Source of the DNA: Planctomycetaceae bacterium
GTDB lineage: Bacteria > Planctomycetota > Planctomycetia > Pirellulales > Pirellulaceae
Direction of reading: 5' to 3'
NCBI GenBank assembly: GCA_002862205.1
Contig: PKCN01000249.1
Location: 1 to 64,000, forward strand
DNA: 64,000 nt
The notes under the pieces were generated by a model. It had not been told where the DNA came from. It made no database searches and saw only the letters and a program-made list of their open reading frames with translations. Shown one piece after another: positions 6,855 through 58,080 of this stretch. The position numbers and the translations under genes were made by a program. How positions within the stretch are numbered: the stretch's first letter is position 1; the number at the start of each line of letters is the position of its first letter.

Positions 6855-6873
6855 CCGCTGAGACTTCCTGCAT

Positions 6874-10310: not shown

Positions 10311-10372
10311 CCCGAGCTTTGAACATCCGCAGCTTCAACACCTGAAGTTTGGCATAAGCAAATGCAATTGAT

Positions 10373-13674: not shown

Positions 13675-13744
13675 GGGATACGATACAAACGTGGGTATTG
13701 GAATGTCAGTAGGAACGTGTGTGTGTCAGACTGAGATCATGAGT

Positions 13745-15367: not shown

Positions 15368-15549
15368 AATTTTTTCTCCTCAACGGTGAGTGACGGGGTG
15401 CAACGGTGGGGAGGCCAGTTGAGTCTCACATCAATCAACCAATTCTCCTGACTCGAATATGTGACGATGCCTTCCTCGATGCCAGCCACTGCATCAGGCT
15501 TTGACGCCAGCGGTTCAAAACAGATCAGGCAATTTTGCAGCGGCAGCAA
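15364..15549 (-). CDS. Possible 61-residue ORF coupled to the sulfatase
   Basis: The frame from a TTG at 15549 ends TGA, overlapping the ATG of the sulfatase in the ATGA arrangement typical of translational coupling. The peptide reads MLPLQNCLICFEPLASKPDA... with two Cys (CLIC) near the start and VEEKKL at the end. There is no signal peptide, no known domain and no clear ribosome binding site before the TTG. It fills the only sizeable gap in the cluster between the esterase and sulfatase genes. It could be a chance frame whose last codons overlap the sulfatase RBS. Confidence 0.25.
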   Translation of the reverse strand: MLPLQNCLICFEPLASKPDAVAGIEEGIVTYSSQENWLIDVRLNWPPHRCTPSLTVEEKKL

Positions 15550-15589
15550 GTCTGGAGATTTATCAGGGGGCCTGATTGCGTATCTCCAC

Positions 15590-37330: not shown

Positions 37331-37586
37331 ACGTGTGTCCGGCGTCCTGCTCCCTGGCAGTTCATTTTGAGAACGGGCAGGATTTTTTTGAGCGATCCTG
37401 CTGTGTTCCAAACGGTCAGCGTTTGTCATCTTACTAGCCCCCAAAACATAGCGGGGAACCGACTCGTTCTCCGATTGTGCCAACATCCGTGGCCATCGAC
37501 TGGGACAGCTCATGAAAACTGCCGGTTTCTGTGTGCATGAAAGGGTTTCCTCAGCTAATATGCGTTTTTCGAAAACGGTTTAATTG

Positions 37587-40016
37587 ATGCTCCGAAATTG
37601 TTCTTTTCCAAGCTGCGTCCGATCCTGCTTCCTGTTGGTGGCGGTGTTGCTGTGGGCGCCTATATCCCTGTTTGGGCAATCCAGCAATTCAGTCGATCGC
37701 CCTCCTGTGATCAGCGATGACGGCGGCTCGATCCCGGTGAAGGTCATTGACGGGCGATTGATCGTGGGATGTGATATCTCGGGACCAAAACTTCGGGTAC
37801 CCGTCAACCTCTGGTTGGATTTTGATGGGGCCTATGGTTTGCAACTGCACAATCGAGCAGCAGACCCATTGCCGGCAGAGACTCGGGCAGGCAAACCCAA
37901 CCCTTTGACTCTTCACTTTGGCGACTTCACACTTGATGTGGCCCGTCGAGAGTTGGGGCCTGAAGAAGATTTCGAGGAGTTCACGAAATACCATTCAAAG
38001 GAAATTGGCGAGAACGCTCTGACCGGTGCGATTGGAGCGCACCTATTGAAGCACTTTGACGTGATTTTCGACTTGCCACAGGACCGCATCACATTGGCTC
38101 CCCCTGGCCAACTCGCAAACTATCAGGCAGAGGTTGATGGGGGGGAAATGCTGACACCGATCACGCTGCAGAATGACCTGGTTTGGCTTCCTGTGAGCCT
38201 TCCAGGTCCCGAAACGGCGAAGCCCCAAGAGCTCCAGGACAAGACGAAGGTATTGACCCGTGCTCTCGCAATTGGTTCCTCAAGATACGACACTGCTCTC
38301 GAACGACGTTTGTGCAACTCCTTAAGGCGACCGGCTGGAAATGTAGGCCCCTTGTTGTGCGAGACAATTGATTTCTCTCCCTACGTTGCATTTCGACCTT
38401 CGGAGGTGGTGCAGGTACATCCCGACGGTGTTGCTGGGGTCATGGGAATCAACTTGTTGGAGAAGTTCCGCATTCACGTGGATCGCCAATCTCTGCTGGC
38501 CACCCTACGCGCCGCAGGTTCACCGCAATTTCCTGATGAGGACTTGAAGTGGTTTCAGGCGATGGTGGCAGAGAATCGCGATTTGGTTCTGGCGTGGCTT
38601 GATGAACACGCCAATACACGACTTGGCCGTGAGGCTGCAGAATTTCTACTCACACTCATGCTGGATGAAGGAGCCGAAACCGACGAGCTTGCGTCCGCGA
38701 TTCAATGGGTCAATGACACCATGGTTGCTGACCTAAGGGCGACTCGGCTTTTCGATCTGATGGAAGAGTTGGTCAACGAGGGTGAGGTTGATCACGGTAT
38801 TGCGGCGGGAGAAATGGGCGTCAAGAGCGCCCGCAAGGATCGCTACCCGGAGGCAAGTTACAAACTGCACGGTCGATTGGGGGAGCTTCTTTTACCGCGA
38901 GACACACGCGAGGCATGGCGGCACCTCTTGTCTGCCGCCTTTGGTCTCCCCGATGACGGCATGATCAACTTGAACTTGGCGCGGGTTTACGAAGCCGATG
39001 GAAAATCAAAACGAGCCTTCAGTCGGTACATTCAAGCATTAGTCAAAGAAGAAAGTAGCGAGCTGGCAATGCAGGCTCTCGTCCGTATGGACAAGGATCT
39101 TCCGCCTGAGGACCGGATGACCATCGAATCCATTGACCGAATGATCAGCGGGCGTGTGCGAAATTTCTCTGCACCCGATGTCTATCAGAGCCCCCCTGAT
39201 CAACGCACCAATCGAACGAGTGTCGTTGAATTTTTTACCAACGCGTACATCGGTACCGAGCAGCGGGGAGGCGCAATCGGTGGAGCATTGGGGAACCAGG
39301 GGGTGCAATCACACTTCAATGATACCGAGTGCGTTTTCCTTTCGTACCATCTGCCGGTACCCCGAATTGAACCGCTTGTCACACCGCTGGGGCAATACAT
39401 GGCTGGTTGGCTTGGGGTACGAGGCCCTGTGGTGCAGGTTGTTGATGGCGTGCGTACGGCACCCGGTGCGGGCAAGCATCGCCAAGCGGCGGAAATTTAT
39501 GAGACGACCCGTGACGCTGTAGCCAACCGCCTTGCGCGGAGCAGCCCTGTTGAATTGAACGCAAACGCAATCCTCAAGGGTAACCAGTTAACAGGTAGCG
39601 TCACTGTGATTGGCCCAAAGATCGGCAGCGATGAGGATCTAGCACTGAAACCACTGGTGATTCAGGTGGTGGTGGCAGAGCGGGGAGTGGTGTTCCATGG
39701 ATCAAGCGGAGTGGTGATCCATCGTATGCTCGCTCGTGGCTTGGCGACTCGTGGGTCGCTATCAGGCGTTGCGTTTCTACCCGATGATGAGGGAGTTCTG
39801 GAATTCAGTTTTAATAGGGATCTGACGGATCTTGAGAATGAAAACCGCGAATTCATCGATCAACTCGAAGCGGAAGAAACCAAGGGTGGAGCACGGATGG
39901 GGCTACGAATTGAACCCAAGAGTGTTGAACTGATTGTGTTGGTGCGAAACGCTGAGACGGGTGAGGTCCTGCAGTCGACACATTGCGATCTGATACGTGA
40001 GGATCGACAGAAATGA
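37587..40016 (+). CDS. Exported retropepsin-like protein, first gene of the MoxR/Bat-type operon
   Basis: ATG 37587 (the track uses the TTG just before); about 809 residues. A signal peptide covers about 1-32 (...APISLFGQ). Residues 50-165 look like an aspartic-protease-fold domain (VNLWLDFDGAYGLQLH, then TGAIGAHLLKHFDVIFDLPQDRITLAPP), and a second similar lobe appears near 255-310 (VAGVMGINLLEKFRIHVDRQSLLATL). The usual catalytic Asp-Thr/Ser-Gly is not present (LDFDG stands in its place), so activity is doubtful. The middle is helical and TPR-like (about 330-520). The C-terminal third is beta-rich. Its stop overlaps the start of the next gene (ATGA). Confidence 0.75.
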   Translation: MLRNCSFPSCVRSCFLLVAVLLWAPISLFGQSSNSVDRPPVISDDGGSIPVKVIDGRLIVGCDISGPKLRVPVNLWLDFDGAYGLQLHNRAADPLPAETRAGKPNPLTLHFGDFTLDVARRELGPEEDFEEFTKYHSKEIGENALTGAIGAHLLKHFDVIFDLPQDRITLAPPGQLANYQAEVDGGEMLTPITLQNDLVWLPVSLPGPETAKPQELQDKTKVLTRALAIGSSRYDTALERRLCNSLRRPAGNVGPLLCETIDFSPYVAFRPSEVVQVHPDGVAGVMGINLLEKFRIHVDRQSLLATLRAAGSPQFPDEDLKWFQAMVAENRDLVLAWLDEHANTRLGREAAEFLLTLMLDEGAETDELASAIQWVNDTMVADLRATRLFDLMEELVNEGEVDHGIAAGEMGVKSARKDRYPEASYKLHGRLGELLLPRDTREAWRHLLSAAFGLPDDGMINLNLARVYEADGKSKRAFSRYIQALVKEESSELAMQALVRMDKDLPPEDRMTIESIDRMISGRVRNFSAPDVYQSPPDQRTNRTSVVEFFTNAYIGTEQRGGAIGGALGNQGVQSHFNDTECVFLSYHLPVPRIEPLVTPLGQYMAGWLGVRGPVVQVVDGVRTAPGAGKHRQAAEIYETTRDAVANRLARSSPVELNANAILKGNQLTGSVTVIGPKIGSDEDLALKPLVIQVVVAERGVVFHGSSGVVIHRMLARGLATRGSLSGVAFLPDDEGVLEFSFNRDLTDLENENREFIDQLEAEETKGGARMGLRIEPKSVELIVLVRNAETGEVLQSTHCDLIREDRQK

Positions 40017-41608
40017 GCACTCATGATTCCGACCAACTCCAACAGGATATCAAGACGGTCGCCTGGAATGCGTCGAACCAGATCCAATCGACTGACCAAC
40101 GCGCCGCACTGGCTGCGCACGTTCCTCGAGCATTGGGTTTGCTGCTTGTCGTTCCAATCGCCGGACTGTTGTTGCAGGGGATCCGTTATCTCGAGGGTTG
40201 GCAGGCAGCCTCCATTTTTCCGCTCGTGGTTTGGGTGGGGCTGACCGTCGCAGTGCCGCTAGGCTGGTTCCTTTACAAGGCGGGTACTTTACGGATCAGT
40301 ATCGATCGTCAACGGGCGTTGCTGGCGGCAGACCGACAACTAGGTTCGGCAGACCGTATCACAACCGCTGATGAGTTCATGCAGAAGTCGACCACCAGCG
40401 GTTTTATGGAAGCGGCTGTTGACGACGCGGCAACTTGGGCAGAGCAGGGTCGTGACACCCGCCTGAGCATGAATGTCGATTCACAACCGCGTAAAATACT
40501 TGCGTGGCTAGCGGTTCCCGCCAGTGCGCTGTTATTAGGTCTGGTCTTTCTAGCTGGGCACTACACGCGACCAGTGGCAGTCCTCAATGCTGACTCGCCG
40601 GGCATGTTTACACCACTGATTGACAACCCCGAGTCGCCCAACAGTGACAACGACGTCGATCTCAAGGAACCTCAACCCGAGGACACGGATGATTCGCTGA
40701 AAAAACCCGCAAAAGAACCCCGCAAACAGCGTGCTGTGAATCGGCAAGGCGAAGCCAATGCAGCTATCCCCGACAGTGCCGAAGAATCAGACGGGAAATT
40801 GAACGAGGGTGAAACCCGGGAAAGCCAGCAAGCTTCAAACCCTTCAAGTGCGAGAGGTGCTCCGTCGGCATCTGGCCAGCCTTCGAAGTCTGATGATGAA
40901 CAAAAGCCCCGTAAGAAATCCAAAAAGAAGAGTAAACCAGAACGGGAACGAGACAAAAAAGAACGAAAGGAAGATGAAAAGCCCTCGGGTGCAAGTGCCG
41001 GACAGGGCTCGTCAAAGGGGTCTGATAATAATGCGGCGCCGAGCGATTGGGCCAGCACAAGTCAAGCTGCAACCCCCGAGGATGAAAACATTGAAGACGA
41101 AGATGACGTTGATGATGAAGAAGAAGAACAGGAATCTCGCGGAGGCGTGCAGCCCAACATGCGGGATCGTCGAACCCCTGTGAATCGTGACTTGCAAATC
41201 GGCTTTGGAAACGCCCGTCCTAACCCCGATGCCAATGGTCGCGGTGGTCCCAGTGGTCAGAAAAAATCGCGTGGAGTGGCGTCACTTGTCTTGGGCGTCC
41301 CCATTCCCGACCGCATCAATGGTCAACCCAACAAGGGAAGAATCCGTATTACGCAGCAACGTATCACTCCCGAAATCGAGGAAAGTGAACAGGTGCCCGC
41401 ACAGGGACGCACGACGCTAAACGGACCTGTGGGGCCGATGCACCACCCCAAACTCGAGCCATGGTTGCAAAACCTGGTTCGTACCTACTTTCTTAATCAG
41501 CGTGAGCAGACTCCTCTGCGTACGTCTGAAAAAGATGACGAAACAAATATTTCCGATGATTCCTTGCAGACATCAAGTAATGCAGAAAGTGACAGCCCGC
41601 AATCATGA
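40013..41608 (+). CDS. Membrane protein with long charged linker
   Basis: A 531-residue protein. Two transmembrane helices lie near 35-55 and 60-82, and another near 160-180 (WLAVPASALLLGLVFLAGHY). After that come about 200 residues of low-complexity charged sequence (KPRKKSKKKSKPERERDKKE..., DENIEDEDDVDDEEEEQESR), alternating basic and acidic blocks. The C-terminal part (about 410-500) is more ordered. It starts with an ATGA overlap with the gene before and ends with one into moxR. Its place in the operon, between exported and MoxR genes, suggests it is a membrane scaffold for the complex; no domain is recognised. Confidence 0.8.
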   Translation: MSTHDSDQLQQDIKTVAWNASNQIQSTDQRAALAAHVPRALGLLLVVPIAGLLLQGIRYLEGWQAASIFPLVVWVGLTVAVPLGWFLYKAGTLRISIDRQRALLAADRQLGSADRITTADEFMQKSTTSGFMEAAVDDAATWAEQGRDTRLSMNVDSQPRKILAWLAVPASALLLGLVFLAGHYTRPVAVLNADSPGMFTPLIDNPESPNSDNDVDLKEPQPEDTDDSLKKPAKEPRKQRAVNRQGEANAAIPDSAEESDGKLNEGETRESQQASNPSSARGAPSASGQPSKSDDEQKPRKKSKKKSKPERERDKKERKEDEKPSGASAGQGSSKGSDNNAAPSDWASTSQAATPEDENIEDEDDVDDEEEEQESRGGVQPNMRDRRTPVNRDLQIGFGNARPNPDANGRGGPSGQKKSRGVASLVLGVPIPDRINGQPNKGRIRITQQRITPEIEESEQVPAQGRTTLNGPVGPMHHPKLEPWLQNLVRTYFLNQREQTPLRTSEKDDETNISDDSLQTSSNAESDSPQS

Positions 41609-42603
41609 GTTCTACCTTGTCCGCTAATACCCCCGCCGAAGCCCGCGAAGCTGCTGAAGAGTTTCGCACTGTTCATAGTGCCATTCGCAAGGAAGTTGGT
41701 CGCATGATGGTGGGACAGGATGCTACCGTTGACGGGGTGCTCGCTGCTCTGTTCGCAGCGGGCCATGTCTTGCTGGAAGGTGTACCCGGTTTAGGGAAAA
41801 CGCTGCTAGTCAGCTCTCTTGGCAAAGCCATTGACCTCAGCTTCAGCCGTATACAGTTCACCCCAGACATGATGCCTGCCGATATTCGTGGCACCAATGT
41901 GCTGTCGGAAACTGAAACGGGTGGCACGAAACTGGAGTTTCAGTCCGGTCCACTCGTGGCCAACCTTGTGCTGGCTGACGAGATCAACAGGGCGACGCCA
42001 CGGACACAAGCCGCTCTGCTGGAGTCGATGCAGGAGAAACAGATCTCAGTCGGTAAAAGAACAATAAAATTGGACGACCCCTTTTGTGTGATGGCGACGC
42101 AAAACCCCGTCGAGCAGGAGGGCACCTATCCCCTGCCCGAGGCACAGTTGGATCGCTTCTTGTTCAAATTGGTTGTTGGTTACCCCGCCGAGAACGACTA
42201 TCGAACGATTCTCAGACGCACAACCTCCAATGAAGAGATAGATCTTAAACCTGTCTCCGATGCCAACACGGTGATTCGCATGAGGCAAGTGGTGCGAGCA
42301 GTGCCGGTGCCCGAACATGTTGAGACCGATGCCATCCGTCTGGTGATGGCAACCCAACCGGGTAACGAGTACACCGCGTCGATGGTAAATGAAGTGGTAG
42401 CACTTGGGGCATCACCTCGTGGTGTTCAGGCGTTGATTCTTGCAGGGAAGGTCCGTGCCTTGCTGGAGGGGAGATTTGCCGTCGCGACGGAAGATCTCAA
42501 AGCCGTAGCCCCGGATGTCTTGCGACATCGTGTTCTGGTCAACTTTCAAGGCATGTCCGAGGGCATTACTTCGGATGATGTCATTGCTGAAGTTCTGAAG
42601 TAG
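41605..42603 (+). CDS. MoxR-family AAA+ ATPase
   Basis: A 332-residue cytoplasmic protein. Walker A is GVPGLGKT (59-66), Walker B VLADEINRA (122-130), and sensor 1 is in MATQNPVEQEGTYPLPEAQLDRFLF, which is the MoxR hallmark. The arginine-rich C-terminal lid region (AAA_lid_2) follows. MoxR ATPases act as chaperones with adjacent DUF58 and vWA proteins, often in metal-cofactor insertion or cell-envelope stress. The ATGA overlap with the upstream gene and only 94 bp to the DUF58 start downstream make an operon almost certain. Confidence 0.96.
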   Translation: MSSTLSANTPAEAREAAEEFRTVHSAIRKEVGRMMVGQDATVDGVLAALFAAGHVLLEGVPGLGKTLLVSSLGKAIDLSFSRIQFTPDMMPADIRGTNVLSETETGGTKLEFQSGPLVANLVLADEINRATPRTQAALLESMQEKQISVGKRTIKLDDPFCVMATQNPVEQEGTYPLPEAQLDRFLFKLVVGYPAENDYRTILRRTTSNEEIDLKPVSDANTVIRMRQVVRAVPVPEHVETDAIRLVMATQPGNEYTASMVNEVVALGASPRGVQALILAGKVRALLEGRFAVATEDLKAVAPDVLRHRVLVNFQGMSEGITSDDVIAEVLK

Positions 42604-42697
42604 AACTTTGTTTCGCACCGGCGGCACATCAAATCGTTGTTCCAATCCGTCTGTGTTTATCGACTTCACTCCTTCACGCTTCCCAACCCAGTTCCGA

Positions 42698-43600
42698 ATG
42701 AACGATCCTTTCAATCTGCTTGATCCTGACTTCCTGCAACAGGCAAACGCAATGCGCGTTGTGGCAAGGCGAGTCGCACCAGCTGGTCGCTGGGCCGAGC
42801 ATCGGTCACGAGATCGGGGTCAGGGCATGGAGTTCCGCGATTACCGACCGTATTCTCCTGGTGACGAATTGAAGTCGATTGACTGGAATGTCTACCAGCG
42901 ACTTGGCCGTTTTGTCGTTCGGCTTTTTGAAGAGATGGAAGATTTACCCATCTATTTGATGCCGGATCTGTCAAAGAGCATGTGGCATGAGGATCCACCA
43001 CGCGCGATCACTGCGATGAAAGTGGCCGTCGCATTTGCCTCGATCGGCTTGGATCAGCACGATCGTGTTGGTGTTCTGCCTTTCAGTGATGCTCTGGACA
43101 GCACTGTCCGACCGACGTCAGGACGCGGTCGACTGAGTCTGATTGCAGATACCATGAGTCGCGCCGCAGAGAAGGCCCGTGATAACCCAGGCGGCACCGA
43201 TCTTGCAGCCGCGCTGGCGAAACTCAGGGGGCTACGAATGCGTGAAGGTCTGCTCGTGATCGTATCCGACTTCCTTGATCCTCACGGGATTGAAGTCATG
43301 ACATCCGAGTTGAAGAAAACGCGACATCGTCCGTTGCTTGTGTCAATCACTCGCCACAGTGACCGCGAACCAGACGTGCACGGCGATATCCGCGTGCGGG
43401 ATTGTGAGACAGGCGATATGCAGGATGTTTCGGTCACCACCCATGTCATGGAACAGTACCGCGAAGCATACGACGCCCATTTCCAGAAACTGCAGGATTT
43501 TGCTCGCAGCCGGCAGGGAAACTTCCTGTTTCTGGACCATGAGCTTGATGTCATGAAACAGTTGGCCCAACTATTTGAGGGTGGGAGTTTCGTCGCATGA
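42698..43600 (+). CDS. DUF58 (vWA-like) protein of the MoxR operon
   Basis: Started at ATG 42698 (MNDPFNLLDPDFLQQ), not at the track's 42608, because the DUF58 domain begins here; 300 residues. The family signature GQGMEFRDYRPYSPGDELKSIDWN is clear, followed by the vWA-like MPDLSKSMW (Asp-x-Ser-x-Ser MIDAS), VGVLPFSD and VIVSDFLD. DUF58 proteins are the standard partners of MoxR. No transmembrane helix is seen, so it is cytoplasmic or peripheral. It ends in an ATGA overlap with the BatA-like gene. Confidence 0.95.
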   Translation: MNDPFNLLDPDFLQQANAMRVVARRVAPAGRWAEHRSRDRGQGMEFRDYRPYSPGDELKSIDWNVYQRLGRFVVRLFEEMEDLPIYLMPDLSKSMWHEDPPRAITAMKVAVAFASIGLDQHDRVGVLPFSDALDSTVRPTSGRGRLSLIADTMSRAAEKARDNPGGTDLAAALAKLRGLRMREGLLVIVSDFLDPHGIEVMTSELKKTRHRPLLVSITRHSDREPDVHGDIRVRDCETGDMQDVSVTTHVMEQYREAYDAHFQKLQDFARSRQGNFLFLDHELDVMKQLAQLFEGGSFVA

Positions 43601-45180
43601 CTTTCACTTTCCTGTCTACTATCGCGACCCTTGCTGGAATTCTGAGTCTGGCGTTGGCATTGGTACTGTTGCAGCGTTTGCGTGTACAACACCGCGAGAT
43701 CGAAGTCGTCAGTACGCTCTTTTGGCAGGCAGCCGTGAAAGAGACGCGTGCACGGGTCTTTATCAAGGAGTTCCGACATTGGCCGGCATGGCTACTTCTC
43801 GTGCTGATCGCATCGGCTCTATGGGTGTTGTTGGCCGGGCCACGTTGGTCAGGCAACGACCAGATGCAGCATGTCGTGTTACTGGACGGCAGTATATCGG
43901 ACCCTTCCGTGTCGAACTCAGATCTTGCCTTGGCAACGGAAAAAGCGTCCAAACTACCAATCATGAATCGCGAAATCATTCACGCGGGTCCACGATTGGA
44001 AACGTTGTTGCGACCCGGCGAACCGGTGCAGCTAGCGCAACTACGGTGGGAAGCAAAACGGATTCCCAGTTCAACAGGACTCGAGTGGGCTCTGGATGCG
44101 TTGTCATCGCGGGTTGCCGCGGATCAGCCACTCACTGTTCATGTCATTGGTGATGCGGAGTTCGATGATCGGTTTCTTGACGGTTTGCCTGCGGAACTTA
44201 CTGTGTATCGCATTGACCGCGGGCCAAGACCAGAGAAGCCCTTGCTGCGGTCGCTCGGTTTGTCCAGTGCGTCCTCTGGTGTCTGGCAAAATGTTGATGT
44301 GTTGTTTTCCCCGGAAAACGCAGATGCATTTCAAATCACGGACTTGGAACTGACCCTCGACACCCAACCAATCGCTAATCGCGTTGTCTCGACAAACGAC
44401 GGTAATTACATCGTGGAGGGAGTTCCTGCTCGGGGCGGGATCTTCCGTTTGAGCTACCAAAACAGTCAGGTCGGTGCGCTTACCCTCCCCAAACGCGAAC
44501 CGATCAAAATCCTGTTCGAGTCCACGACGCCGAAGACATTGAAAGATCTGGTGTTGCTGGATCCCGCATGCATCGAGGTCACAACGGATGCAGACTTGGT
44601 GGTTGGCCCAAGTGATCAAGCAGATCTTTGTTTGGTGTCCGATGCGGAAGCTGCGTTTCAAATCGATACCGAAATCGAAGATGCAGAGTCGGCTCTGAAT
44701 TCATTGATTGATGAATTGGCCTTACGACAGATTGATGCGACAGGATTAGCAGAGCAAAGCGGACGGGTTGTTGATGTACGCGTTGCGGTAGCCGATTCCA
44801 GACGTATTTCTCTCTGGAGAAATCTCTTCACATCAACCTATAACTTTCAGCAGAGCCGCGCGTGTCCGATTTTCGTGGCACGTTCGATTCGCTGGCTGGC
44901 TGGACAACCTGAGTTGGTACCGTGGGCTGAACAGGGAATGCGGCTACCGGAAGCTCGCCCCGTATTTGACCGCATTTCTGGCTCGACTGCCCAAACCAAT
45001 GACGGCCGCAACTTGCAGGTCACCCGATTGACCCGGCCCACGCAGATTCAGGGGTTGTTAGCAGATTCTCCGAGCTCAAGCGTTGTGGCGGGCGTTGGAG
45101 TGGCTGCGTGGATTGGTGCGTTTGCGATTCTGTTGCTGCTTGCTGAATGGACGCTTTTTCAGAAGGGACGCATGCCATGA
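43597..45180 (+). CDS. BatA-like membrane protein (BatA/aerotolerance N-terminal domain)
   Basis: A 527-residue protein. Two N-terminal helices (about 5-24 and 62-82, WPAWLLLVLIASALWVLLAG) flank the basic patch RLRVQHREIEV, as in the BatA N-terminal domain. A partial MIDAS (LLDGSIS, about 97-101) follows, but no full vWA metal site is evident. The middle is beta-rich. A C-terminal transmembrane helix lies at about 500-520 (VGVAAWIGAFAILLLLAEW). It would present a periplasmic domain to, or from, the MoxR complex. ATGA overlaps on both sides (43597, 45177). Confidence 0.88.
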   Translation: MTFTFLSTIATLAGILSLALALVLLQRLRVQHREIEVVSTLFWQAAVKETRARVFIKEFRHWPAWLLLVLIASALWVLLAGPRWSGNDQMQHVVLLDGSISDPSVSNSDLALATEKASKLPIMNREIIHAGPRLETLLRPGEPVQLAQLRWEAKRIPSSTGLEWALDALSSRVAADQPLTVHVIGDAEFDDRFLDGLPAELTVYRIDRGPRPEKPLLRSLGLSSASSGVWQNVDVLFSPENADAFQITDLELTLDTQPIANRVVSTNDGNYIVEGVPARGGIFRLSYQNSQVGALTLPKREPIKILFESTTPKTLKDLVLLDPACIEVTTDADLVVGPSDQADLCLVSDAEAAFQIDTEIEDAESALNSLIDELALRQIDATGLAEQSGRVVDVRVAVADSRRISLWRNLFTSTYNFQQSRACPIFVARSIRWLAGQPELVPWAEQGMRLPEARPVFDRISGSTAQTNDGRNLQVTRLTRPTQIQGLLADSPSSSVVAGVGVAAWIGAFAILLLLAEWTLFQKGRMP

Positions 45181-48100
45181 TACTGTTACATCCCTACATG
45201 CTGTTGTTTGCGTTGGTAGCATTCATTCCCTGGTTTGGTCCTTGGAAGGGCCCGCGCGCGACACAGAATTTGTTGCGTTCGCTTGTGTTCGTTGCAATCT
45301 CGGTGGCCATGGCCATGCCGCACCTACCATCTGGACAGACGACACCATGCAAAGTACTGATCATCGACCGTAGCCCTAGCATTTCGCAGGCTTCACGAGC
45401 ATTGGCTCTCTCGCAACTGGCAGAGTTTGCTCAAGAGCCCGACAGCCATCTGGTCACCTTTGGTGCTCCGTTGCAGTCTGCAGCGTTGTCTGGATTTTCA
45501 TCCGTAACGGCAATTCAGGACCACCCCTCGAGGGGAACTTCGCCACTCTCCGCGGCCATTGCCCGTGCTCAGACACTAATTCCAAGAGGGACTGGTGGAA
45601 GCGTGACGATAGCCAGTGACTCGCTTGCAACGCGTCCCGACGACAATCGAGCCATCGCTGCGTTGCGAGAACAGGAAATTCCCGTGCATTGGGTTCAGTT
45701 GGAAACGGTCCCGAGAACCACAACCCCGGTAGCAGTCAGTTGGTCAACGCCACTTCGCAAAGGTGCAAATTCGCGGATTGATGTACGTCTTGTTTCCACG
45801 ACAACAGCAACATCTGGCACTTTGATTCTGAGGGCAGGGGAAACCGAATTGACGCGTGCAAATTTCAGCGCTGCTGCTGAACAAACAATTCAGCTGAGTT
45901 TTGAACCGGACGAGTCAGGTTTTGTTGATGCGGTGGTTGTCGCTCAAAATTCAGACGGCAGCGAGAACGCACTTGCTGCTGTCCTGCCGATTATGCGTCC
46001 CCATCAGTTGTTGTATCTCGGTGATCGACAGACTGGCGGTAACGAAAAGTTAAGCGATATGCTGGGGCCAAGCTTCGATGTCGTGACCGTGGACCTCAGT
46101 GATACTCGTGGACTGCGGGACGCACTGAAACGCTGCGACCTTGTATTGCTGGATGATCAGCCTGCGGAGAACGTATCATCCCGGAATGAGGAAAGCATTG
46201 TTGATGCGGTGCGGGATGAAGGACTCGGCCTGGTGATGAGCGGTGGTCGTGCATCCTTTGGGGGTGGAGGCTGGCATGACCGTCCAATTGAAACGCTATT
46301 GCCCATCGAGCTTGTACAAAAGGAAGAGAAAAGAGACCCTTCGACTTCTCTGGTGATTGTGATTGATACGTCTGGCTCCATGAGTGGTGTGCGAGTGCAA
46401 CTCGCCAAAGAGGTTTCGCGATTGGCAATGAAGCGGTTGCTGCCACACGACAAAGTTGGAATCGTCGAGTTCTATGGTGCGAAACGTTGGGCTGCTCCTC
46501 TTCAACCAGCATCCAACGCGATTGAATTGCAACGGGCACTCAACCGCATGGACGCGGGCGGGGGAACCGTCATTCTGCCTGCATTGGAAGAAGCGTTTTA
46601 TGGGCTTCAGAATGTCGATACACGTTACAAACACGTGCTCGTGCTCACCGACGGAGGAGTCGAGTCAGGCGATTTTGAATCGTTGATGAGGCGGATGGCG
46701 AACGAAGGTATTAATGTATCGACCGTACTTGCAGGTGGCGGGTATCACAGCGAATTCCTCGTCAACATCGCGAACTGGGGCAAGGGGCGTTTTTACAACG
46801 TACCCAACCGCTTTAATCTGCCAGAGATTCTGCTCAAACAACCCTCAACGACCAAGCTTCCTTCCTATCGGCCAGGGCAGCACATTGTTCAGGCTCGTGG
46901 CGGTCCGGGATGGTGGGGCGAGGTCGATACGAGCAGTTTGCCGCCGCTGGCAGGATACGTTGAATCCAAGCCACGCGAGGGTAGCGAAATATTATTGGAA
47001 ACGGTTGCCGAAAAGCACCCCATACTGGCTACCTGGCGTTATGGTCTGGGACGTGTCACAACACTCAGCACCGAACCCTTGGGCGAGGGTACCGAACCCT
47101 GGCAGAAGTGGTCTGATTATGGCAATGCGTTAGCGAGAATCCTGCAACGTAGCACGGGCGACATACGTGAACCCTTCGAATTTGAGTTTGAGTTTGACGG
47201 TGGGGACGTGCTGATCCATGCAATCCGTCAGCAACCACGGAACCTCACCGCAGAAAAGATCAATCCACTTGCAAGGCTGCACGACTCAAATACCGAGATC
47301 GAATTTGTGCGACGAAGCCCGGATCGGTATTTGGCGCGACTGCCAACCCCCGCGATTGGAGAAACGATCAAACTGGAAACCTCGGCGACGAATACTCAGG
47401 ACCGTTGGAAGATCATGTCGGTAATGTCACCAGTGATGGCTGAGCATTTCGTTGACCCGGACAACGCCATGGATGCTACAACGCTTGTAACACTTACGGG
47501 AGGTCAGCGCATGTCACCCAAGTCAGTTTGGTCAAATGGATCCACTTCACAGCCAGAGGGTGACACACTGATCCCGTTGTCTCCTCTGTTGTACGGCATT
47601 GCCTTGCTGCTGTTTCTGGCCGAAATCATCTACCGCCGACTTCCTCGGCGGACGCAGGCAGTTGCAATGCAGGCCCCCTCAATCGTGCTGTTGTTCTGGT
47701 TGAGCTTGCAAGCGGCGACAGTCCACGCACAGGAACCCTTGAGTAACGAGGTGGCTGTAGCGGCAACCGAGGTTATTGACGTCGGGCTGCGAGACGGTGT
47801 CAGTGATACTGCAGTCGCTCAGCTTTTTGACCGTGCGATCCTGAAAGAGGGAAACCTGCAAAGCACGCTCGATTGGCTGTCGGAATCGACAGGGGATTTA
47901 GCCGACCCGCGGAACCGGATCATTGCTGAAATCGAAGTCAAGTTGGCAGCACGACGAGGCGATCTGCAACGCGCATCTGATCTGTTGAAGGATCTGCTTG
48001 AACAACAGCAAGTACTTGAGTCGCGGCTCGATTTGGTCCTGATTCAGGCAAAATTCCATGACGCCCTTGGTGAGACTGATGCCGCAAAAGAGCTGTACAC

Positions 48101-51100
48101 GAAACTCACTGTGTCAGAACTCGCAGAAGCCGATAGGCAGACGGTAAGCCTCCGCCTGGCGTTGATGGGCTTGTTAGGCGACGCACAGGCGAAACAGGGC
48201 AGCGATGCACAACCGTTAATCGATCTGGCGACAAAGTCGGACGATGTCGGTTTCAAAAATCGCGCAGCAAATGTCCTGGCCGTACAGAATCGACATGCCG
48301 ATGCCCTGAAATTGTTCACCATTACTGGATTGGGCACCCAGAAATTTCGAAGCGCCAGCCGCGTCACGGAGTGGGCCATCCGTGCGAAAGAGCGGGACAA
48401 AGCGATTGAGACTGCATGGCAGGCCGTTGAAACTGCGCAGTTACGGCGGGACCGCAATTACGCCCTAGCGTTACTTGTCGAAGCCTATCGCCTGAAGAAG
48501 CAGACAGCTGGAATTGAGACCTTGGTCGATGAATTCAAACGCCGGAATGATGCAGCTGAACCGATGACGGTGGAGATGCAGAGAGTGTGGATTGATCTGC
48601 TCCGCGAGTTGGGACGATACGACGACGCAATCGCACTGTTTCGGGAGAGTGCAAGTGCAGCGTCGACATTCACGGTTGAAATGCGACGTGAGTTGCTGGA
48701 ACTCGAGGGGGAAGCTGGCAATACGAAACGAATGATTTCAACTTACCGCGAGCTGATTGAAACGGAACCTGATGAACTCGCTTGGCGCGGTGGGCTCACC
48801 CAGATATTGCTCGAACGAGGTGATAACGAACAAGCAAAAGCATTATGGAGCGACTACGTTAACGAAACGGAACGTAGTACAGTGTTGATGAATGCCGCAC
48901 AGACTCTTGGTGAACTGGGTCTGGATCTGTTGGCTAAAAACACCGTTGAGCGAATGGTTAAACTGAGGGTCAATCATGGTCAAGCTTTGCTCTATTGGGC
49001 AGATTTGCAGCAACGCCGAGGCGATGTGGAGGGCGCGGAAGCCTCTTTGAATCGAGTGCAGGGGTTTGAGGATGTCGGAGACGATGTCAGGGCGGAACTG
49101 GCCAGTGCCTATGAGCGGATTGGCAGGCAGGACAAGGCGATTGAGGTCAACGAGGCAATTCGTGCTACGCGAAAAGTCGTTGCTGAGGATCTGGAAATGC
49201 GACTTGCCTGGTTGTACAGCGAAGTCGGCGACGAGGAGAAAGCGCTTGACCAATGGTTGGCTTTGTGGCGCAAAATAACCTCGATTCCACGTCGCAGGTA
49301 TGTCGAAGACCGCTTGATGACGGTGGCAAGCCGACTGGGAACCCTTGCAGACATAGCGATTGAAATTGAGGAAAAACTTGCCGATGGAACCGCCGATTCG
49401 CGTGAGGCCGGCCTACTGGTCCGTATCTACAGTCGAGTCAATGACTCGGTTGCTGCCACCGAAATCTCTGAAGAGTATATGGCACAAACCGGAAAAGACC
49501 TGGTGGACCAACTGCAGGAGAAAGGCCGGATCTACCAGATCTGCAACGACTATTGGAACTATGAGAAGGTCATTGAGGAGTTGATTGAGGTCGATCCTGA
49601 AGGGGAGACTGAGTACCTGAGACAACTGGCGCTGAGCATGTTGGAAAGAGGAAAGGCGCAGGATGCCCGCAATGTATTGATGAACTTGCGAACAGCTGAT
49701 GATGGCAAAGACTCAATTGGTGGTGAATTTGAAGCCGGTGTACTCTCACTGGTCGGGATGAAAGACGAAGCCGCAGACGCCTACCGGCAGGCCATTGCGA
49801 CGCACCCAGACCGAATTGAATCCTATCTGCTTTTGGCAAATCTGCTCAAGGAAAACAACCAGACCGAGCGTGCTGTCGGGATGTTTCAGTATCTCGCTGA
49901 AAATGCCCAACGCGATGATCTGTTTACCATTGCAATTGACGGCCTTCTGAACATGGAGGCCAAGGGTCGCAACATCCAGTGGGCACGTCGGATCACTCTC
50001 GAGCGACTCGCAGGTCGCGAGGACAAGAACTATCTCTATCAGCTATTGTCCGATCTCTCTGCCGAAGTGAACGATAAATCCGGACAGATTCGGGCCATGG
50101 AGAACTCATTGGCTGTATCTGGAACGAGGCGTTTATCCGTACTCCGCGAATGCATGGAACTCTCGTCCAGAATCCGCGGAGGAGTCTACTACTCTAGTTC
50201 ATCTCGTGGACCCTCGAATAAAGGGAACCTGCCGTTCTTTGCCTTTGGTCGAAGACTGATCGGACTGAATGAACTGATGCCCCCACAGGTATTCCTTGAT
50301 CTGGGCAAAGCGTTTCTCGATGACGGTGATACACAAAGCGCGGAACGCACGTTTGGCATGGCCAGGAATCTTGCCGATCCACGTAGTTATCAAAGGGAAG
50401 TTGCGGAGATCTTTGAGAAAGCGGGCAAAACCCCCGAAGCATTGGCGCGATATGATCGTCTACTGCGCACCAGCCCTTCAGATGTTCCGTTGATGGCTCG
50501 TGTCGCAAAGCTGAACGAAAGTGAAAAGAAAGATGCCATCGCGTTCAGGTTCTATCAGGGAGGTTTGAACCTACTATTGTCGCAAACACCGTTGACGACA
50601 AGAGAAGCAAGCAACACGGGACAACAGAGTTTTTGGAGCAACAATCGCGATGCGTATCAAACGTATTCGGATGAACTTTTGATGGGCATGTTGGTCACCG
50701 TCCCTGAAAAGGAACTTGATGCAATGGTTACCGACCAACGTGAGCGACTGTTCGCTGATCTCAAGCAAATTACTGAACTGCGCAAAGACCAAAAAGTTGC
50801 CAACACGCTATCCGAAGCGCCAAGGGTCGAAAAACGCTTCACACAATTGCAACGAATCTACCTCGCTCTTGCACAGATGGAATCGCTCGAAGCAGTCGAC
50901 GCGGTTCTGCTGAAACAATTCCCAGATGATGGAGCGTTATTCGCTAACATTACAACACTGCGTCTCAATGCCGGACGCCGTGACAGTCTGGCAAGGTTGA
51001 TGCAAAGTAACCTGATCTCGGCAACACAGCAGGCAACTATCAAAACCATGCTCGGCGAAACTGACGTGGACGTTGGAAACGCCACCCTCACCCCGACCCA

Positions 51101-54100
51101 GATGTGGAAAGCACTGTTGCCCGCATGGATCAAAGATGACCGTGAGTTAACACTTAAATTACTGAGACGGTTGAATCAACAGAGCGTGCGGGGCAGGGCG
51201 GGAACACCTTCTTACGTCGTGGTCAATGGCCGCGCCGTTCGCCAGACTCGTTCAAACCTGGGTGACGCTCGCACATGGATGCAGTTGGCGGTGACTCTGG
51301 GTGATGACAGCCTTGCACTCCAATTGGCAAGGGCCAACTGCGATCGTTTGACATACCAAAACCAGCAATCTTTCTATCAGATGTGTCGGGAGATACTCCC
51401 CGAGACACGCTTCTCCGAGTTAGTACGATACGCGACCAATCAGCAAAGTCAGAAACCGGAAAGGCTGGCTAATTATCTCTGGTTGCTGGCGGAGATGAAA
51501 GAATATGTGTCCGACTTGCAACCAAGTGACGGCGATTTGCTTGGATTGATCCAAAATGGCACCCTGCGTCTTGGTTACTCATTTCCCTTTCCCGTTGCGA
51601 TGCAGGTCTTTCCTGAATCGATTCGCGCGGATGCATTTGCCGAGACCATGGAATCCGTCACCCCGAAAATTCTGCCCCAAGAGCTGATCCGGGTTCCATT
51701 CAACTATGACAAACCCATTGATGAGGCAACGCAGAAAGTGGTTTTGGCTGCTTTTGCCGAAGGAATTGATGCCGCCTTGCAGGACAATTACTTGCGCTAT
51801 TGCTCGTACTATATGCCAAGAACTGGCACTGTTATCAAACTCAAGGAAAATCAGACGCTTGCAGTCAAAATGCTTGATCTCTTGACAGCAGACAAGGTGC
51901 AGAAAAGAGAGCCGAATATTTCAAAGATGGCTCAACTTGTCAAAGCGATGGTTTTATATCAATCCGGTGAGAAGAATGAAGGAATCAAACTTGCGCTCAA
52001 GGCAGGGTCCCCATTCGAAACTGTCTCTGATAGCTATCTCAGGATGACCCGCACGTGGGTCTACAATCAATTCCTCAGTGGGGATGATACACAGATGTTT
52101 CTCGATGCGTTGCCTGGCAAGCAAAACGGGAAAAAACTTTCAGTCGAAGATCTGGACAAGCGATTTGCCTTGCTGCAGCGGGTGCGGGCAACTGCTGCAC
52201 TGAACATGTTGTATGCACAGGCCGCAGAAATGTATCCGAACGAGTCCAAATACAAAAGAGCGAGGTCGACATCGACGGCCAAACCCGAAAACGTTTTCAA
52301 GGATATCACGCTGCAAGAAAAACGCATTCAGGAATTGCAGGGGAAGAACGTGAACGGTCCGCAGAATGCAAACCAGAAAAGCCAGGATGCAATCAGGTCC
52401 CGATTGGCTGCATTGTGGAACTCCGTTGACCATCGCGTGAACGCCATGAAGTACTGGACAGTGGTGGATGACCATCAACGACAAGCATCAGAAGCAGCGA
52501 AAAAGCAGAAAAATAATGCTGATGCTGCGAAGAGCAACCAAAAAGCTGCCGAGCGAGTGGTTAAGCCCAAAACTACACCCAGTCAGTCCAACAAGGCGAC
52601 CGCCTCTAGCGACGAGACCGAGAAAAAATACGCGAAGGGTCTGTTGGGTGTCAAAGCAGCACTTGACGCTGGTGATGAATCGGGTGTGTTACGGACTTTG
52701 CGAACTGTGTGGCGAACATTGCCTCCAGCTGTCTCGAGCCCGTATGGCTCGAGAGTTGTGGTACGGCCGTTGAGCGTTTCGTGGCCTACTTCCAAAGCCC
52801 CTAAGAAACCCAAAAACCTCCCAACAATACAAAAGAATGGGACGCGTGTAACCAATTCTGACTCGGCTCGACGTCAGAAACGCGGTGGGCTGTCGACGTT
52901 CGTCCCTCCCGCACGCGTGGCCGCAACTCCGCGTCCCAAGGCGTGGGATGTCCTTGCGGAGCATCCCTATGTATTGCCTGAGATGCATCGCATCGTACGT
53001 GCGAGCTTTCTAGCACCAGCAAATGCCCAAGCCGTTTCACTTGGTTTACTCAAGGCTGAGCGACTTGCGAACGGTGACGAGGTGGTTCTTGCAGGCTTGG
53101 TCAAAAAACTTCAGCAGGGTCAACTAACCGCGCCTGTGTTGGATGGATTTTTTGAGATCGTTCGTGAACGCCCTGAGCTGATTAATGACAGCAACAAGTG
53201 GGTGCTCGACAATTTAATGGACCAACTGGGAATTAAGAATGGTGATCAGGCCAGATTGCTTGCACCTCTTTATGCGCGAACCGGTGACCTCAACACGGCC
53301 TCGGCATTGTTTCGCGTGAGTGCATTCTTTCCATCAAAGACGGGAAGCGGTTTCGCTCGACTGATTGATCAAGCTCAACCCTTTTTTCAAGGCGCTGATC
53401 TGCTTGTACTCGCTGAGGCAATGTTTGAAACGGCATACAGCAGAAAAATGGCACTTCCCACAGTACTTGAACTGCGTCGCGACACGTTACCCGTGGCTGC
53501 AGCTGCGGAAGTAACCCGCAAGGATTTTCCAAGTATCCGTCTCATCCATGATGCGTACGACGTCAACACACTGATTGCTGGCACCAGTATTTATGCAGGT
53601 AGCGGCAACCATCAGGCAGCAATTGATTTTCTGTATACGCTTCTCAAACAACACGGAAAGCCGCTCGCTCCGCTCACAACCAGTGCGTCCCAGTATTACG
53701 TCAATCGCGGCAGCAAGCGCCCATGGTTGTTGACGCGAACCAATCTCTTGGATCTGTTCTCGGTTTCATCCTCTGCATCAACGCAGCAAAAAGATACCTG
53801 GTGGCGTGCTGCCGCTACCGCGGTTGCCACACTACGTGATGATGAAACGGTCAGCCGAGAAATTATTTGCGAGGCGCTTTTGACAATTGCGTATTGGCAA
53901 ACACAGGGAGAATTCACTGAGGCTGGCAAGATCACACTTTCAATGGTTGATGACGAATTGCTCCAAGACGCAAAGAAGCTGGAACCGCTGGCTGTGGACC
54001 TGTATCGTGAGGCTGGATTGATTGGACGCTCATTTGAACTGCAACGCCGGATGCAGCAAGAAGGAAATCTATCGTACACTCGCTTTGGAGAATTCGTCCG

Positions 54101-54446
54101 TGTTTGCGCCGGCCGTGAGGGAGCGGACAGCGGCAAGAAACTATTCAATGAGCTTGTAAAATTGAGTTTGGACGATGCTTTACTGTCGGCTGGAAAAGAG
54201 ATTGCAGCAGATGACACAGAATTCCTTGGTACGATCGAGGCCTTGGAAAAAGAGAAAAAGGCGGCCGAGCAAGCGTATCAGAAACGTGCAGCATCCGCGG
54301 CTGCAAGAAATACGCCGAAAGTGTCCCAGGCGTCCCGCACTGGGGCTTCCCAGGTTCGGGCTACCGGGAAAGGTGTCGCCCTGCCCCTGTCTGCTCCTCT
54401 GAAACTGAGAGCACTGCCACTGAAGCGAGTCTTGAAGAAGCCCTGA
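45177..54446 (+). CDS. Giant BatA/vWA protein fused to a long TPR region
   Basis: Start at ATG 45177, an ATGA overlap with the gene before; about 3,089 residues. N-terminal helices at about 5-20 and 30-47 are followed by a vWA-like segment (VLIIDRSPSIS). A GATase1-like stretch (MRPHQLLYLGDRQ ... LVMSGGRASFGGGGW) leads to a complete vWA domain with MIDAS VIDTSGSMSG (about 400) and VLTDGGVESGD. A transmembrane helix lies near 805-825 (LLYGIALLLFLAEII). Directly after RRLPRR comes MQAPSIVLLFWLSLQAATVHAQ, which reads like a complete signal peptide at residue 831. The remaining ~2,240 residues are mostly helical repeats of TPR type, with one charged low-complexity patch (about 2,360-2,490). It could be an envelope scaffold driven by MoxR. 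Confidence 0.88.
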   Translation: MILLHPYMLLFALVAFIPWFGPWKGPRATQNLLRSLVFVAISVAMAMPHLPSGQTTPCKVLIIDRSPSISQASRALALSQLAEFAQEPDSHLVTFGAPLQSAALSGFSSVTAIQDHPSRGTSPLSAAIARAQTLIPRGTGGSVTIASDSLATRPDDNRAIAALREQEIPVHWVQLETVPRTTTPVAVSWSTPLRKGANSRIDVRLVSTTTATSGTLILRAGETELTRANFSAAAEQTIQLSFEPDESGFVDAVVVAQNSDGSENALAAVLPIMRPHQLLYLGDRQTGGNEKLSDMLGPSFDVVTVDLSDTRGLRDALKRCDLVLLDDQPAENVSSRNEESIVDAVRDEGLGLVMSGGRASFGGGGWHDRPIETLLPIELVQKEEKRDPSTSLVIVIDTSGSMSGVRVQLAKEVSRLAMKRLLPHDKVGIVEFYGAKRWAAPLQPASNAIELQRALNRMDAGGGTVILPALEEAFYGLQNVDTRYKHVLVLTDGGVESGDFESLMRRMANEGINVSTVLAGGGYHSEFLVNIANWGKGRFYNVPNRFNLPEILLKQPSTTKLPSYRPGQHIVQARGGPGWWGEVDTSSLPPLAGYVESKPREGSEILLETVAEKHPILATWRYGLGRVTTLSTEPLGEGTEPWQKWSDYGNALARILQRSTGDIREPFEFEFEFDGGDVLIHAIRQQPRNLTAEKINPLARLHDSNTEIEFVRRSPDRYLARLPTPAIGETIKLETSATNTQDRWKIMSVMSPVMAEHFVDPDNAMDATTLVTLTGGQRMSPKSVWSNGSTSQPEGDTLIPLSPLLYGIALLLFLAEIIYRRLPRRTQAVAMQAPSIVLLFWLSLQAATVHAQEPLSNEVAVAATEVIDVGLRDGVSDTAVAQLFDRAILKEGNLQSTLDWLSESTGDLADPRNRIIAEIEVKLAARRGDLQRASDLLKDLLEQQQVLESRLDLVLIQAKFHDALGETDAAKELYTKLTVSELAEADRQTVSLRLALMGLLGDAQAKQGSDAQPLIDLATKSDDVGFKNRAANVLAVQNRHADALKLFTITGLGTQKFRSASRVTEWAIRAKERDKAIETAWQAVETAQLRRDRNYALALLVEAYRLKKQTAGIETLVDEFKRRNDAAEPMTVEMQRVWIDLLRELGRYDDAIALFRESASAASTFTVEMRRELLELEGEAGNTKRMISTYRELIETEPDELAWRGGLTQILLERGDNEQAKALWSDYVNETERSTVLMNAAQTLGELGLDLLAKNTVERMVKLRVNHGQALLYWADLQQRRGDVEGAEASLNRVQGFEDVGDDVRAELASAYERIGRQDKAIEVNEAIRATRKVVAEDLEMRLAWLYSEVGDEEKALDQWLALWRKITSIPRRRYVEDRLMTVASRLGTLADIAIEIEEKLADGTADSREAGLLVRIYSRVNDSVAATEISEEYMAQTGKDLVDQLQEKGRIYQICNDYWNYEKVIEELIEVDPEGETEYLRQLALSMLERGKAQDARNVLMNLRTADDGKDSIGGEFEAGVLSLVGMKDEAADAYRQAIATHPDRIESYLLLANLLKENNQTERAVGMFQYLAENAQRDDLFTIAIDGLLNMEAKGRNIQWARRITLERLAGREDKNYLYQLLSDLSAEVNDKSGQIRAMENSLAVSGTRRLSVLRECMELSSRIRGGVYYSSSSRGPSNKGNLPFFAFGRRLIGLNELMPPQVFLDLGKAFLDDGDTQSAERTFGMARNLADPRSYQREVAEIFEKAGKTPEALARYDRLLRTSPSDVPLMARVAKLNESEKKDAIAFRFYQGGLNLLLSQTPLTTREASNTGQQSFWSNNRDAYQTYSDELLMGMLVTVPEKELDAMVTDQRERLFADLKQITELRKDQKVANTLSEAPRVEKRFTQLQRIYLALAQMESLEAVDAVLLKQFPDDGALFANITTLRLNAGRRDSLARLMQSNLISATQQATIKTMLGETDVDVGNATLTPTQMWKALLPAWIKDDRELTLKLLRRLNQQSVRGRAGTPSYVVVNGRAVRQTRSNLGDARTWMQLAVTLGDDSLALQLARANCDRLTYQNQQSFYQMCREILPETRFSELVRYATNQQSQKPERLANYLWLLAEMKEYVSDLQPSDGDLLGLIQNGTLRLGYSFPFPVAMQVFPESIRADAFAETMESVTPKILPQELIRVPFNYDKPIDEATQKVVLAAFAEGIDAALQDNYLRYCSYYMPRTGTVIKLKENQTLAVKMLDLLTADKVQKREPNISKMAQLVKAMVLYQSGEKNEGIKLALKAGSPFETVSDSYLRMTRTWVYNQFLSGDDTQMFLDALPGKQNGKKLSVEDLDKRFALLQRVRATAALNMLYAQAAEMYPNESKYKRARSTSTAKPENVFKDITLQEKRIQELQGKNVNGPQNANQKSQDAIRSRLAALWNSVDHRVNAMKYWTVVDDHQRQASEAAKKQKNNADAAKSNQKAAERVVKPKTTPSQSNKATASSDETEKKYAKGLLGVKAALDAGDESGVLRTLRTVWRTLPPAVSSPYGSRVVVRPLSVSWPTSKAPKKPKNLPTIQKNGTRVTNSDSARRQKRGGLSTFVPPARVAATPRPKAWDVLAEHPYVLPEMHRIVRASFLAPANAQAVSLGLLKAERLANGDEVVLAGLVKKLQQGQLTAPVLDGFFEIVRERPELINDSNKWVLDNLMDQLGIKNGDQARLLAPLYARTGDLNTASALFRVSAFFPSKTGSGFARLIDQAQPFFQGADLLVLAEAMFETAYSRKMALPTVLELRRDTLPVAAAAEVTRKDFPSIRLIHDAYDVNTLIAGTSIYAGSGNHQAAIDFLYTLLKQHGKPLAPLTTSASQYYVNRGSKRPWLLTRTNLLDLFSVSSSASTQQKDTWWRAAATAVATLRDDETVSREIICEALLTIAYWQTQGEFTEAGKITLSMVDDELLQDAKKLEPLAVDLYREAGLIGRSFELQRRMQQEGNLSYTRFGEFVRVCAGREGADSGKKLFNELVKLSLDDALLSAGKEIAADDTEFLGTIEALEKEKKAAEQAYQKRAASAAARNTPKVSQASRTGASQVRATGKGVALPLSAPLKLRALPLKRVLKKP

Positions 54447-55889: not shown

Positions 55890-56112
55890 CGGCTCGTCTT
55901 TCGTGGTTTGGGTAAAATCAACAAACATCGGACCGTCAGGATGACGACGTCCAATATCACTCAAAGTTGGATTGCGTTAGTGGTCTGCAAATGGGTCGAT
56001 CGGGGAGCCAGATATCCGGAAGCGAACAAGTACCATGCAACTCGAGGACAATTCCACCAAGCGGGTCATGGTGGACTCTCTAAACCCGAGCATTGAATGG
56101 CACAAGCAACTG

Positions 56113-57927: not shown

Positions 57928-58080
57928 GTACGCAAGTTGGGTGAGACAAAGGCGGCAGCGGCCGCTGGTAGGTGGATGAATCGATAATTGTACCACGTGC
58001 TTGCCAAACTGTATTGGAAAGCATTTCCATTCTCAAACGGAACTGCTTATCGAGCAAGCTTGTGCCGTTGGCGATACCAT

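What the first reader, a model, noticed from the sequence alone, without database searches (positions are those of the whole stretch)
45177..54446. A ~3,090-residue BatA/vWA-TPR protein with an internal signal peptide
The frame joins a BatA-type module (two N-terminal helices, GATase1-like stretch, full vWA MIDAS DTSGS, C-terminal helix near residue 815) to ~2,240 residues of TPR-like repeats. At the junction, residue 831 is an in-frame ATG (47667) opening MQAPSIVLLFWLSLQAATVHAQ, which reads as a complete signal peptide with AxA-like site. It looks like a membrane vWA protein and a secreted TPR protein fused by loss of a stop, leaving both targeting signals. Either one giant chain crosses the membrane twice more, or the internal ATG or signal peptidase yields two products.
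Basis: partly seen in the sequence, partly recalled or inferred. Interest (0 to 1): 0.78.

Follow-up and report, generated by a model that had tools for sequence, protein, structure and literature searches.

The report
vWA-TPR fusion with internal signal peptide
A group of planctomycete bacteria makes a membrane protein and an exported scaffold protein as one giant chain that still carries, in its middle, the export signal the second protein would have if made alone, so the cell's ordinary signal-cutting enzyme probably separates the two.

Summary
The 3,089-residue frame at 45177-54446 is real. It joins a membrane vWA protein (residues 1-823) to a helical-repeat protein (from 852) through a short signal-peptide-like segment. 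It is not a sequencing slip: the fusion is open in all 12 fused copies found (own genome, nine of the same genus, one other Pirellulaceae, one Fuerstiella MAG). Two Pirellulaceae MAGs encode the halves as separate adjacent genes; in both, the downstream protein starts with a normal signal peptide. The internal segment varies in length (28-49 residues) and is the fastest-changing part in six of seven pairs, yet every copy keeps a hydrophobic core and A/G/S before the predicted signal peptidase I cut (Q next in 10 of 12). The internal ATG is not conserved, and two fused copies have no in-frame start codon there, so internal initiation is unlikely. Best reading: a Sec-targeted polyprotein cut by signal peptidase I into a membrane vWA protein and a periplasmic TPR scaffold, 1:1. 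Cleavage is inferred, not shown; an uncut four-helix chain remains possible. TPR-type repeats are supported only to about residue 1830. vWA-TPR fusions in Bat operons are in print; the retained internal signal peptide is the new variant.

The parts
45177..54446 (+). Fused frame, 3,089 aa (alternative upstream ATG at 45147)
   Evidence: ATGA overlap with the upstream gene
45192..45320 (+). N-terminal helices TM1 and TM2 (about residues 6-48), positively charged loop between them
   Evidence: Sequence; loop charge +2 to +3 in 11 of 11 fused copies that have this part
46350..46829 (+). vWA domain (residues 392-551); MIDAS residues D397, S399, S401, T464, D492 invariant in 7 aligned full-length proteins
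   Evidence: Pfam VWA 7.5e-15; alignment A2
47577..47639 (+). C-terminal membrane helix TM3 of the vWA half (residues 801-821), followed by RRLPRR
   Evidence: AlphaFold2 helix of 21 residues; conserved in the junction alignment
47646..47729 (+). Internal signal peptide (residues 824-851): positive n-region, 11-residue hydrophobic core near 836-846, VHA before the predicted cut
   Evidence: low-confidence 11-residue helix in AlphaFold2
47667..47669 (+). In-frame ATG (residue 831); not conserved, probably not a start
47730..54443 (+). Predicted mature second product, starting QEPLSNE (residues 852-3089)
   Evidence: Cleavage column A/G/S in 12 of 12 fused and 2 of 2 split copies; cleavage itself inferred
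47745..50666 (+). TPR-type helical repeat array (about residues 857-1830); 1337-1830 nearly invariant
   Evidence: Pfam TPR families; AlphaFold2 all-helical models; dN 0.011-0.059 in 1337-1830 in the six pairs with data
50667..54443 (+). C-terminal 1,259 residues, no recognised domain
   Evidence: No Pfam family at E<=0.01
43597..45180 (+). Upstream BatA-like membrane protein, 527 aa
   Evidence: Weak BatA hit, 17.7 bits, below cut-off 25.9
42608..43600 (+). DUF58 protein (ORF-finder start TTG; relatives suggest a start near residue 31)
   Evidence: Pfam DUF58 2.2e-31
41605..42603 (+). MoxR-type AAA+ ATPase
   Evidence: Pfam AAA_3 5e-61
40013..41608 (+). Membrane protein of unknown function, 531 aa, conserved in the operon
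   Evidence: No Pfam hit; conserved neighbour
37584..40016 (+). Exported protein of unknown function, about 810 aa, conserved in the operon
   Evidence: No Pfam hit; conserved neighbour

Best explanation
The gene encodes a Sec-targeted polyprotein. The vWA half inserts with helices 1 and 2, places its vWA domain in the periplasm and returns to the cytoplasm through helix 3. The RRxP-rich loop stays inside. The next hydrophobic segment, a leftover N-terminal signal peptide of a formerly separate gene, re-enters the translocon and carries the TPR half into the periplasm. Signal peptidase I then cuts after VHA (residue 851), leaving a three-helix membrane vWA protein and a periplasmic TPR scaffold made 1:1 and next to each other, probably parts of a MoxR/Bat-type complex. 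Shown by sequence: the conserved fusion, the split relatives with a signal peptide, the conserved cleavage motif. Inferred: topology, cutting, complex formation, function.
For: 12 of 12 fused copies are open across the junction, with 8 different lengths, all in frame. In two relatives the halves are separate: G132, 36 nt apart in the same frame, second protein starting MNNKTIMMLILLAAPLMARVSAAQ; G261, ATGA overlap in another frame, second protein starting MKSPISFTLVLLLLVPLGRPAGADQ. Residue before the cut is A/G/S in 12 of 12 fused and 2 of 2 split; next residue Q in 10 of 12 (G007 placed by eye). Motif [AVLISTG]x[AGS][QED] after the hydrophobic core: 11 of 12 at the internal segment against 1 of 34 at helices 1-3. 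The segment is the fastest in protein change (dN 0.16-1.05) in six of seven pairs, while vWA is 0-0.027, as expected of a signal peptide. Helix 3 is modelled as 21 residues, the internal segment as 11 low-confidence residues, and the ordered repeat begins at about 857, just after the cut. Net charge of the helix 3-signal loop is +1 to +6 in 12 of 12.
Against: No protein-level data, and no SignalP-type predictor was available. The motif was chosen after seeing the sequences, and the 12 copies are related, so counts are not independent tests. G007 has LHA|AD and lacks the strict motif. An uncleaved signal anchor is not excluded. In one pair of seven (G005/G008) the internal segment was not the fastest among segments with over 20 codons: the low-complexity segment was faster (0.317 against 0.221).
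Confidence: 0.72

Rival explanations
1. Uncut giant chain: the second hydrophobic segment stays as a fourth membrane helix, so one protein has vWA and TPR parts both in the periplasm and permanently tethered.
For: One uninterrupted frame in 12 of 12 across the junction; vWA-TPR fusions are reported in Bat operons (PMC3557215, passages).
Against: The cleavage-type motif is kept in a segment that otherwise changes fastest; the segment is short and of variable length; it aligns with N-terminal signal peptides of split relatives.
Confidence: 0.2
2. Internal initiation: ribosomes also start at ATG 831, giving a separately made secreted TPR protein besides the giant chain.
For: In the window the ATG sits where the signal peptide's own start would be.
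Against: The ATG is not conserved; 5 of 12 have some ATG in the interval, at different places, 2 of 12 have no ATG, GTG or TTG. No clear Shine-Dalgarno sequence upstream by eye, though planctomycetes may not need one (recalled).
Confidence: 0.06
3. Artefact: a sequencing error or a recent decay event removed a stop near 47650.
For: In G132 only one in-frame stop and 36 nt separate the two frames.
Against: The fused frame is open across the junction in 12 separate genome assemblies down to about 50-55% identity, with strong purifying selection on both halves.
Confidence: 0.01

Closest known systems
BatB-BatC fusion of the Bacteroides-aerotolerance (Bat) operon, e.g. Leptospira biflexa (PMC3557215, passages read)
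   Same: vWA membrane protein fused to a TPR protein in a Bat operon; fused in some species, separate in others
   Different: Here the TPR half is joined to another ~1,260 residues, the vWA half has a long N-terminal region and weak GATase1-like similarity, and an internal signal peptide with cleavage site is retained. Whether the L. biflexa fusion has one was not tested here.
Cytochrome b/c1 precursor FbcH of Bradyrhizobium japonicum (recalled; five searches found no paper describing it)
   Same: Two exported or membrane proteins translated as one chain and separated at an internal signal peptide by signal peptidase
   Different: Unrelated proteins; cleavage there was shown by experiment (recalled), here it is inferred
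BB0173 of Borrelia burgdorferi (PMC5700661, start of abstract and passages read)
   Same: BatA-type vWA inner-membrane protein with three helices and vWA facing the periplasm
   Different: No giant TPR half described in what I read
Stand-alone vWA relatives (867-958 aa) in the same family and order (L066-L075)
   Same: Homologous to the vWA half over nearly its whole length (hmmsearch); MoxR and DUF58 upstream in 9 of 10 loci
   Different: About 30% identity; no homologue of the TPR half in the roughly 20 kb looked at

Membership tests
Bat / MoxR-vWA operon | MoxR AAA+ ATPase gene adjacent | tested here: met
   41605-42603, AAA_3 5e-61
Bat / MoxR-vWA operon | DUF58 gene adjacent | tested here: met
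   42608-43600, DUF58 2.2e-31
Bat / MoxR-vWA operon | vWA protein with MIDAS and flanking membrane helices | tested here: met
Bat / MoxR-vWA operon | BatA N-terminal domain (PF07584) | tested here: inconclusive
   17.7 bits in the 527-aa upstream protein, below cut-off 25.9; none in the fused protein
Bat / MoxR-vWA operon | TPR partner protein (BatB C-terminal part / BatC / BatE) | tested here: met
   TPR families in the fused protein; orthology to BatC or BatE not tested
Bat / MoxR-vWA operon | BatD present | tested here: inconclusive
   The 531- and 810-aa neighbours have no Pfam or NCBIfam hit
Signal-peptidase-processed bacterial polyprotein (FbcH type) | Internal signal peptide between two domains, homologous to an N-terminal one in split relatives | tested here: met
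Signal-peptidase-processed bacterial polyprotein (FbcH type) | Conserved signal peptidase I type cleavage site | tested here: met
   12 of 12 A/G/S at -1; 11 of 12 strict motif
Signal-peptidase-processed bacterial polyprotein (FbcH type) | Two separate products in the cell | not testable with these tools
   Needs protein data
Known anti-phage defence system (PADLOC) | Match to a PADLOC model | tested here: not met
   0 families for 5 of 5 operon proteins tested

The most novel reading that the evidence does not exclude
A clade-wide bacterial polyprotein in which signal peptidase I acts as the maturation protease. Two neighbouring genes of a MoxR operon fused once and kept the second gene's signal peptide under selection, so that a membrane vWA protein and a giant periplasmic TPR scaffold are made 1:1 at one translocon; the operon then reached a Fuerstiella lineage by horizontal transfer.
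Probability: 0.55. Interest if true: 0.66.

Novelty: new variant of a known kind. Interest (0 to 1): 0.56.

Why it matters
Naturally evolved bacterial proteins separated at an internal signal peptide are rarely documented (recalled). This case has the split form, the fused form and many diverged fused copies side by side, so it shows how operon partners can become one translated chain while keeping separate products, and it can be tested by ordinary proteomics. It also suggests that the vWA protein and a giant TPR scaffold of a MoxR operon work as a 1:1 pair, which bears on the unsolved function of Bat-type complexes.

Tried and rejected
Close-relative scan of genome contigs with the single window protein found nothing; the alignment A1 found 11 loci. 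The unknown 810-aa neighbour was used to look for more distant forms of the operon: 51 of 394 genomes matched, but in the ten weak matches inspected its homologues sit outside any such operon (in one of the ten, L126, my ORF filter did not even show the homologue), so no closer outgroup was found. Polarity of fusion against splitting: the vWA-half tree did not resolve it (the two split copies pair at 100/100, fused copies need 2 changes); the MoxR+DUF58 tree puts the 10 fused copies that have these genes in one clade, support only 81/47, with the split copies outside. A single fusion from separate genes is favoured, not shown. PDB sequence and fold searches gave only generic eukaryotic TPR/PPR scaffolds with low TM-scores, so no function follows. 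Anti-phage defence was considered and has no support. An RNA or recoding event was not pursued because the frame is simply open. Papers: PMC3557215 (search listing and passages), PMC5700661 (search listing, start of abstract, passages), PMC6256036 (search listing and passages; only cites the 1989 B. japonicum paper, no statement on cleavage), PMC5837995 (search listing, start of abstract, passages). Ten paper searches were answered; none listed a paper whose title or abstract start concerns this gene or internal signal peptides in planctomycetes.
Full report
What was checked. ATG 45177 overlaps the upstream stop as ATGA; three other junctions of the operon tested have the same overlap, and the aligned start in 7 of 7 relatives checked reads ATGA or GTGA. 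Pfam gives a vWA domain at 392-551 and several TPR families; GATase1_like is below its cut-off in the window protein but passes in two of three relatives scanned. Residues 1831-3089 have no Pfam hit. Upstream lie a BatA-like protein (weak), DUF58, MoxR and two conserved unknowns.

Relatives. Of 60 related genomes including the window's own, 57 have some match to the vWA half, but most are distant stand-alone proteins. With the TPR-half alignment, 13 of 241 genomes of the family match, 5 of 397 of the class sample, and 1 of 170 of the family of G407. Together these are 14 genomes: G000, G002, G005, G007, G008, G010, G013, G016, G017, G020 (window's genus), G066, G132, G261 (same family) and G407 (another family). 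Twelve are fused and two are split (G132, G261). Eight of the twelve fused frames run complete from start to stop (G000, G005, G010, G013, G016, G017, G020, G407); G002 and G007 run off their contigs, G008 is broken by contig ends and a run of N, and G066 has a shorter frame of about 2,506 residues that lacks the tail match.

The split relatives. In G132 the vWA gene ends with a stop after WRRRPQG and, 36 bases later and in the same frame, a separate gene begins MNNKTIMMLILLAAPLMARVSAAQES. In G261 the vWA gene ends in an ATGA overlap and the next gene, in another frame, begins MKSPISFTLVLLLLVPLGRPAGADQ. These align with the internal segment of the fused proteins. The internal segment is therefore most likely the homologue of a true N-terminal signal peptide.

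The junction in the fused proteins. Helix 3 and its RRxP end are conserved. The distance from there to the predicted cut takes 8 values between 28 and 49 residues in the 12 fused copies, always in frame and without stops. Chance of an open frame in base-shuffled junctions is 0.18-0.48 per copy; the copies are related, so I rest nothing on the joint probability. Residue -1 is A, G or S in 12 of 12, and +1 is Q in 10 of 12; in G007 I placed the site by eye at LHA|AD, where the automatic alignment puts another residue. A strict motif appears in 11 of 12 internal segments and in 1 of 34 ordinary helices (TM1-TM3) of the same proteins; this motif was chosen after inspection. In pairwise comparisons the segment has the highest dN in six of seven pairs among segments with more than 20 codons (0.158-1.05); in G005/G008 the low-complexity segment is faster. 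The vWA domain has dN 0-0.027 and the core repeat region 0.011-0.059 (six pairs with data), with dS mostly above 0.6 or saturated. Fast change with a kept core and cleavage site is the usual behaviour of signal peptides (established knowledge).

The internal ATG. In-frame ATG occurs in the interval in 5 of 12, at differing places; 10 of 12 have some ATG/GTG/TTG; G020 and G066 have none. A second start is thus not a conserved feature.

Structure. AlphaFold2 on 577-1210 (9 sequences) gives a 21-residue helix at 801-821, an 11-residue low-confidence helix at 834-844, a low-confidence stretch to about 853, then an all-helical repeat from about 857 (mean pLDDT 64.5). A second model of 851-1830 is all-helical (mean pLDDT 72.7). 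Fold search finds only generic TPR/PPR-like scaffolds.

Topology. Positive loops between TM1 and TM2 (11 of 11) and between TM3 and the signal segment (12 of 12) put both loops inside, the vWA domain outside and the TPR half outside, by the positive-inside rule. The related Borrelia protein BB0173 has its vWA domain in the periplasm by experiment (PMC5700661, start of abstract and passages).

Direction. A vWA-half tree does not settle fusion against splitting. A MoxR+DUF58 tree puts the 10 fused copies with these genes in one clade (81/47, 82% of bootstrap trees) with split copies outside. One fusion is favoured. The outgroup is very distant.

Reading. The simplest account is a polyprotein separated by signal peptidase I: Sec inserts the vWA half, the internal signal peptide restarts export of the TPR half, and the cut after VHA releases it. 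An uncut tethered chain is the main rival. Fused vWA-TPR proteins in Bat operons are in print for L. biflexa, with the separate form in pathogenic leptospires (PMC3557215, passages). Cutting at an internal signal peptide is known from a B. japonicum cytochrome precursor (recalled, not found in the library). The combination, with split and fused forms and a conserved cleavage site, is what appears new here, within the ten paper searches made.

Noticed in passing
46314-46856 and 49185-50666: vWA (residues 380-560) and repeat core (1337-1830) are almost invariant while neighbouring parts differ much more between the same genomes (dN near 0 with dS often saturated); suggests a tight shared interface.
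   Followed up: partly
L082 (G407, Fuerstiella MAG), 3-16633: The whole operon with the fusion occurs in one of 170 genomes of another planctomycete family, inside the Pirellulaceae fused clade in the MoxR+DUF58 tree; horizontal transfer likely, not shown.
   Followed up: partly
37584-40016: Unknown exported 810-aa protein; its C-terminal half has ~25-30% identity relatives in many other planctomycetes; in the ten loci inspected no such operon was seen around them. N-terminal half has a DFDG motif reminiscent of retropepsin-like folds (by eye only).
   Followed up: partly
window genus, G000-G021: The fused gene is patchy: 10 of 22 genomes of the genus hold it; loss, transfer or incomplete MAGs not separated.
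   Followed up: no
47730: Gln follows the predicted cut in 10 of 12 fused copies, like the Q-rule described for Bacteroidetes (PMC5837995, start of abstract and passages); whether planctomycetes share it genome-wide is untested.
   Followed up: no
L103, 5356-12876 (G066): Fused frame ends early in a charged Lys/Glu-rich run and lacks the match to the C-terminal tail; real shortening or frameshift not resolved.
   Followed up: no
54516-57996, - strand: Two sulfatase genes (one with an F5/8-type C domain) lie convergent to the operon.
   Followed up: no
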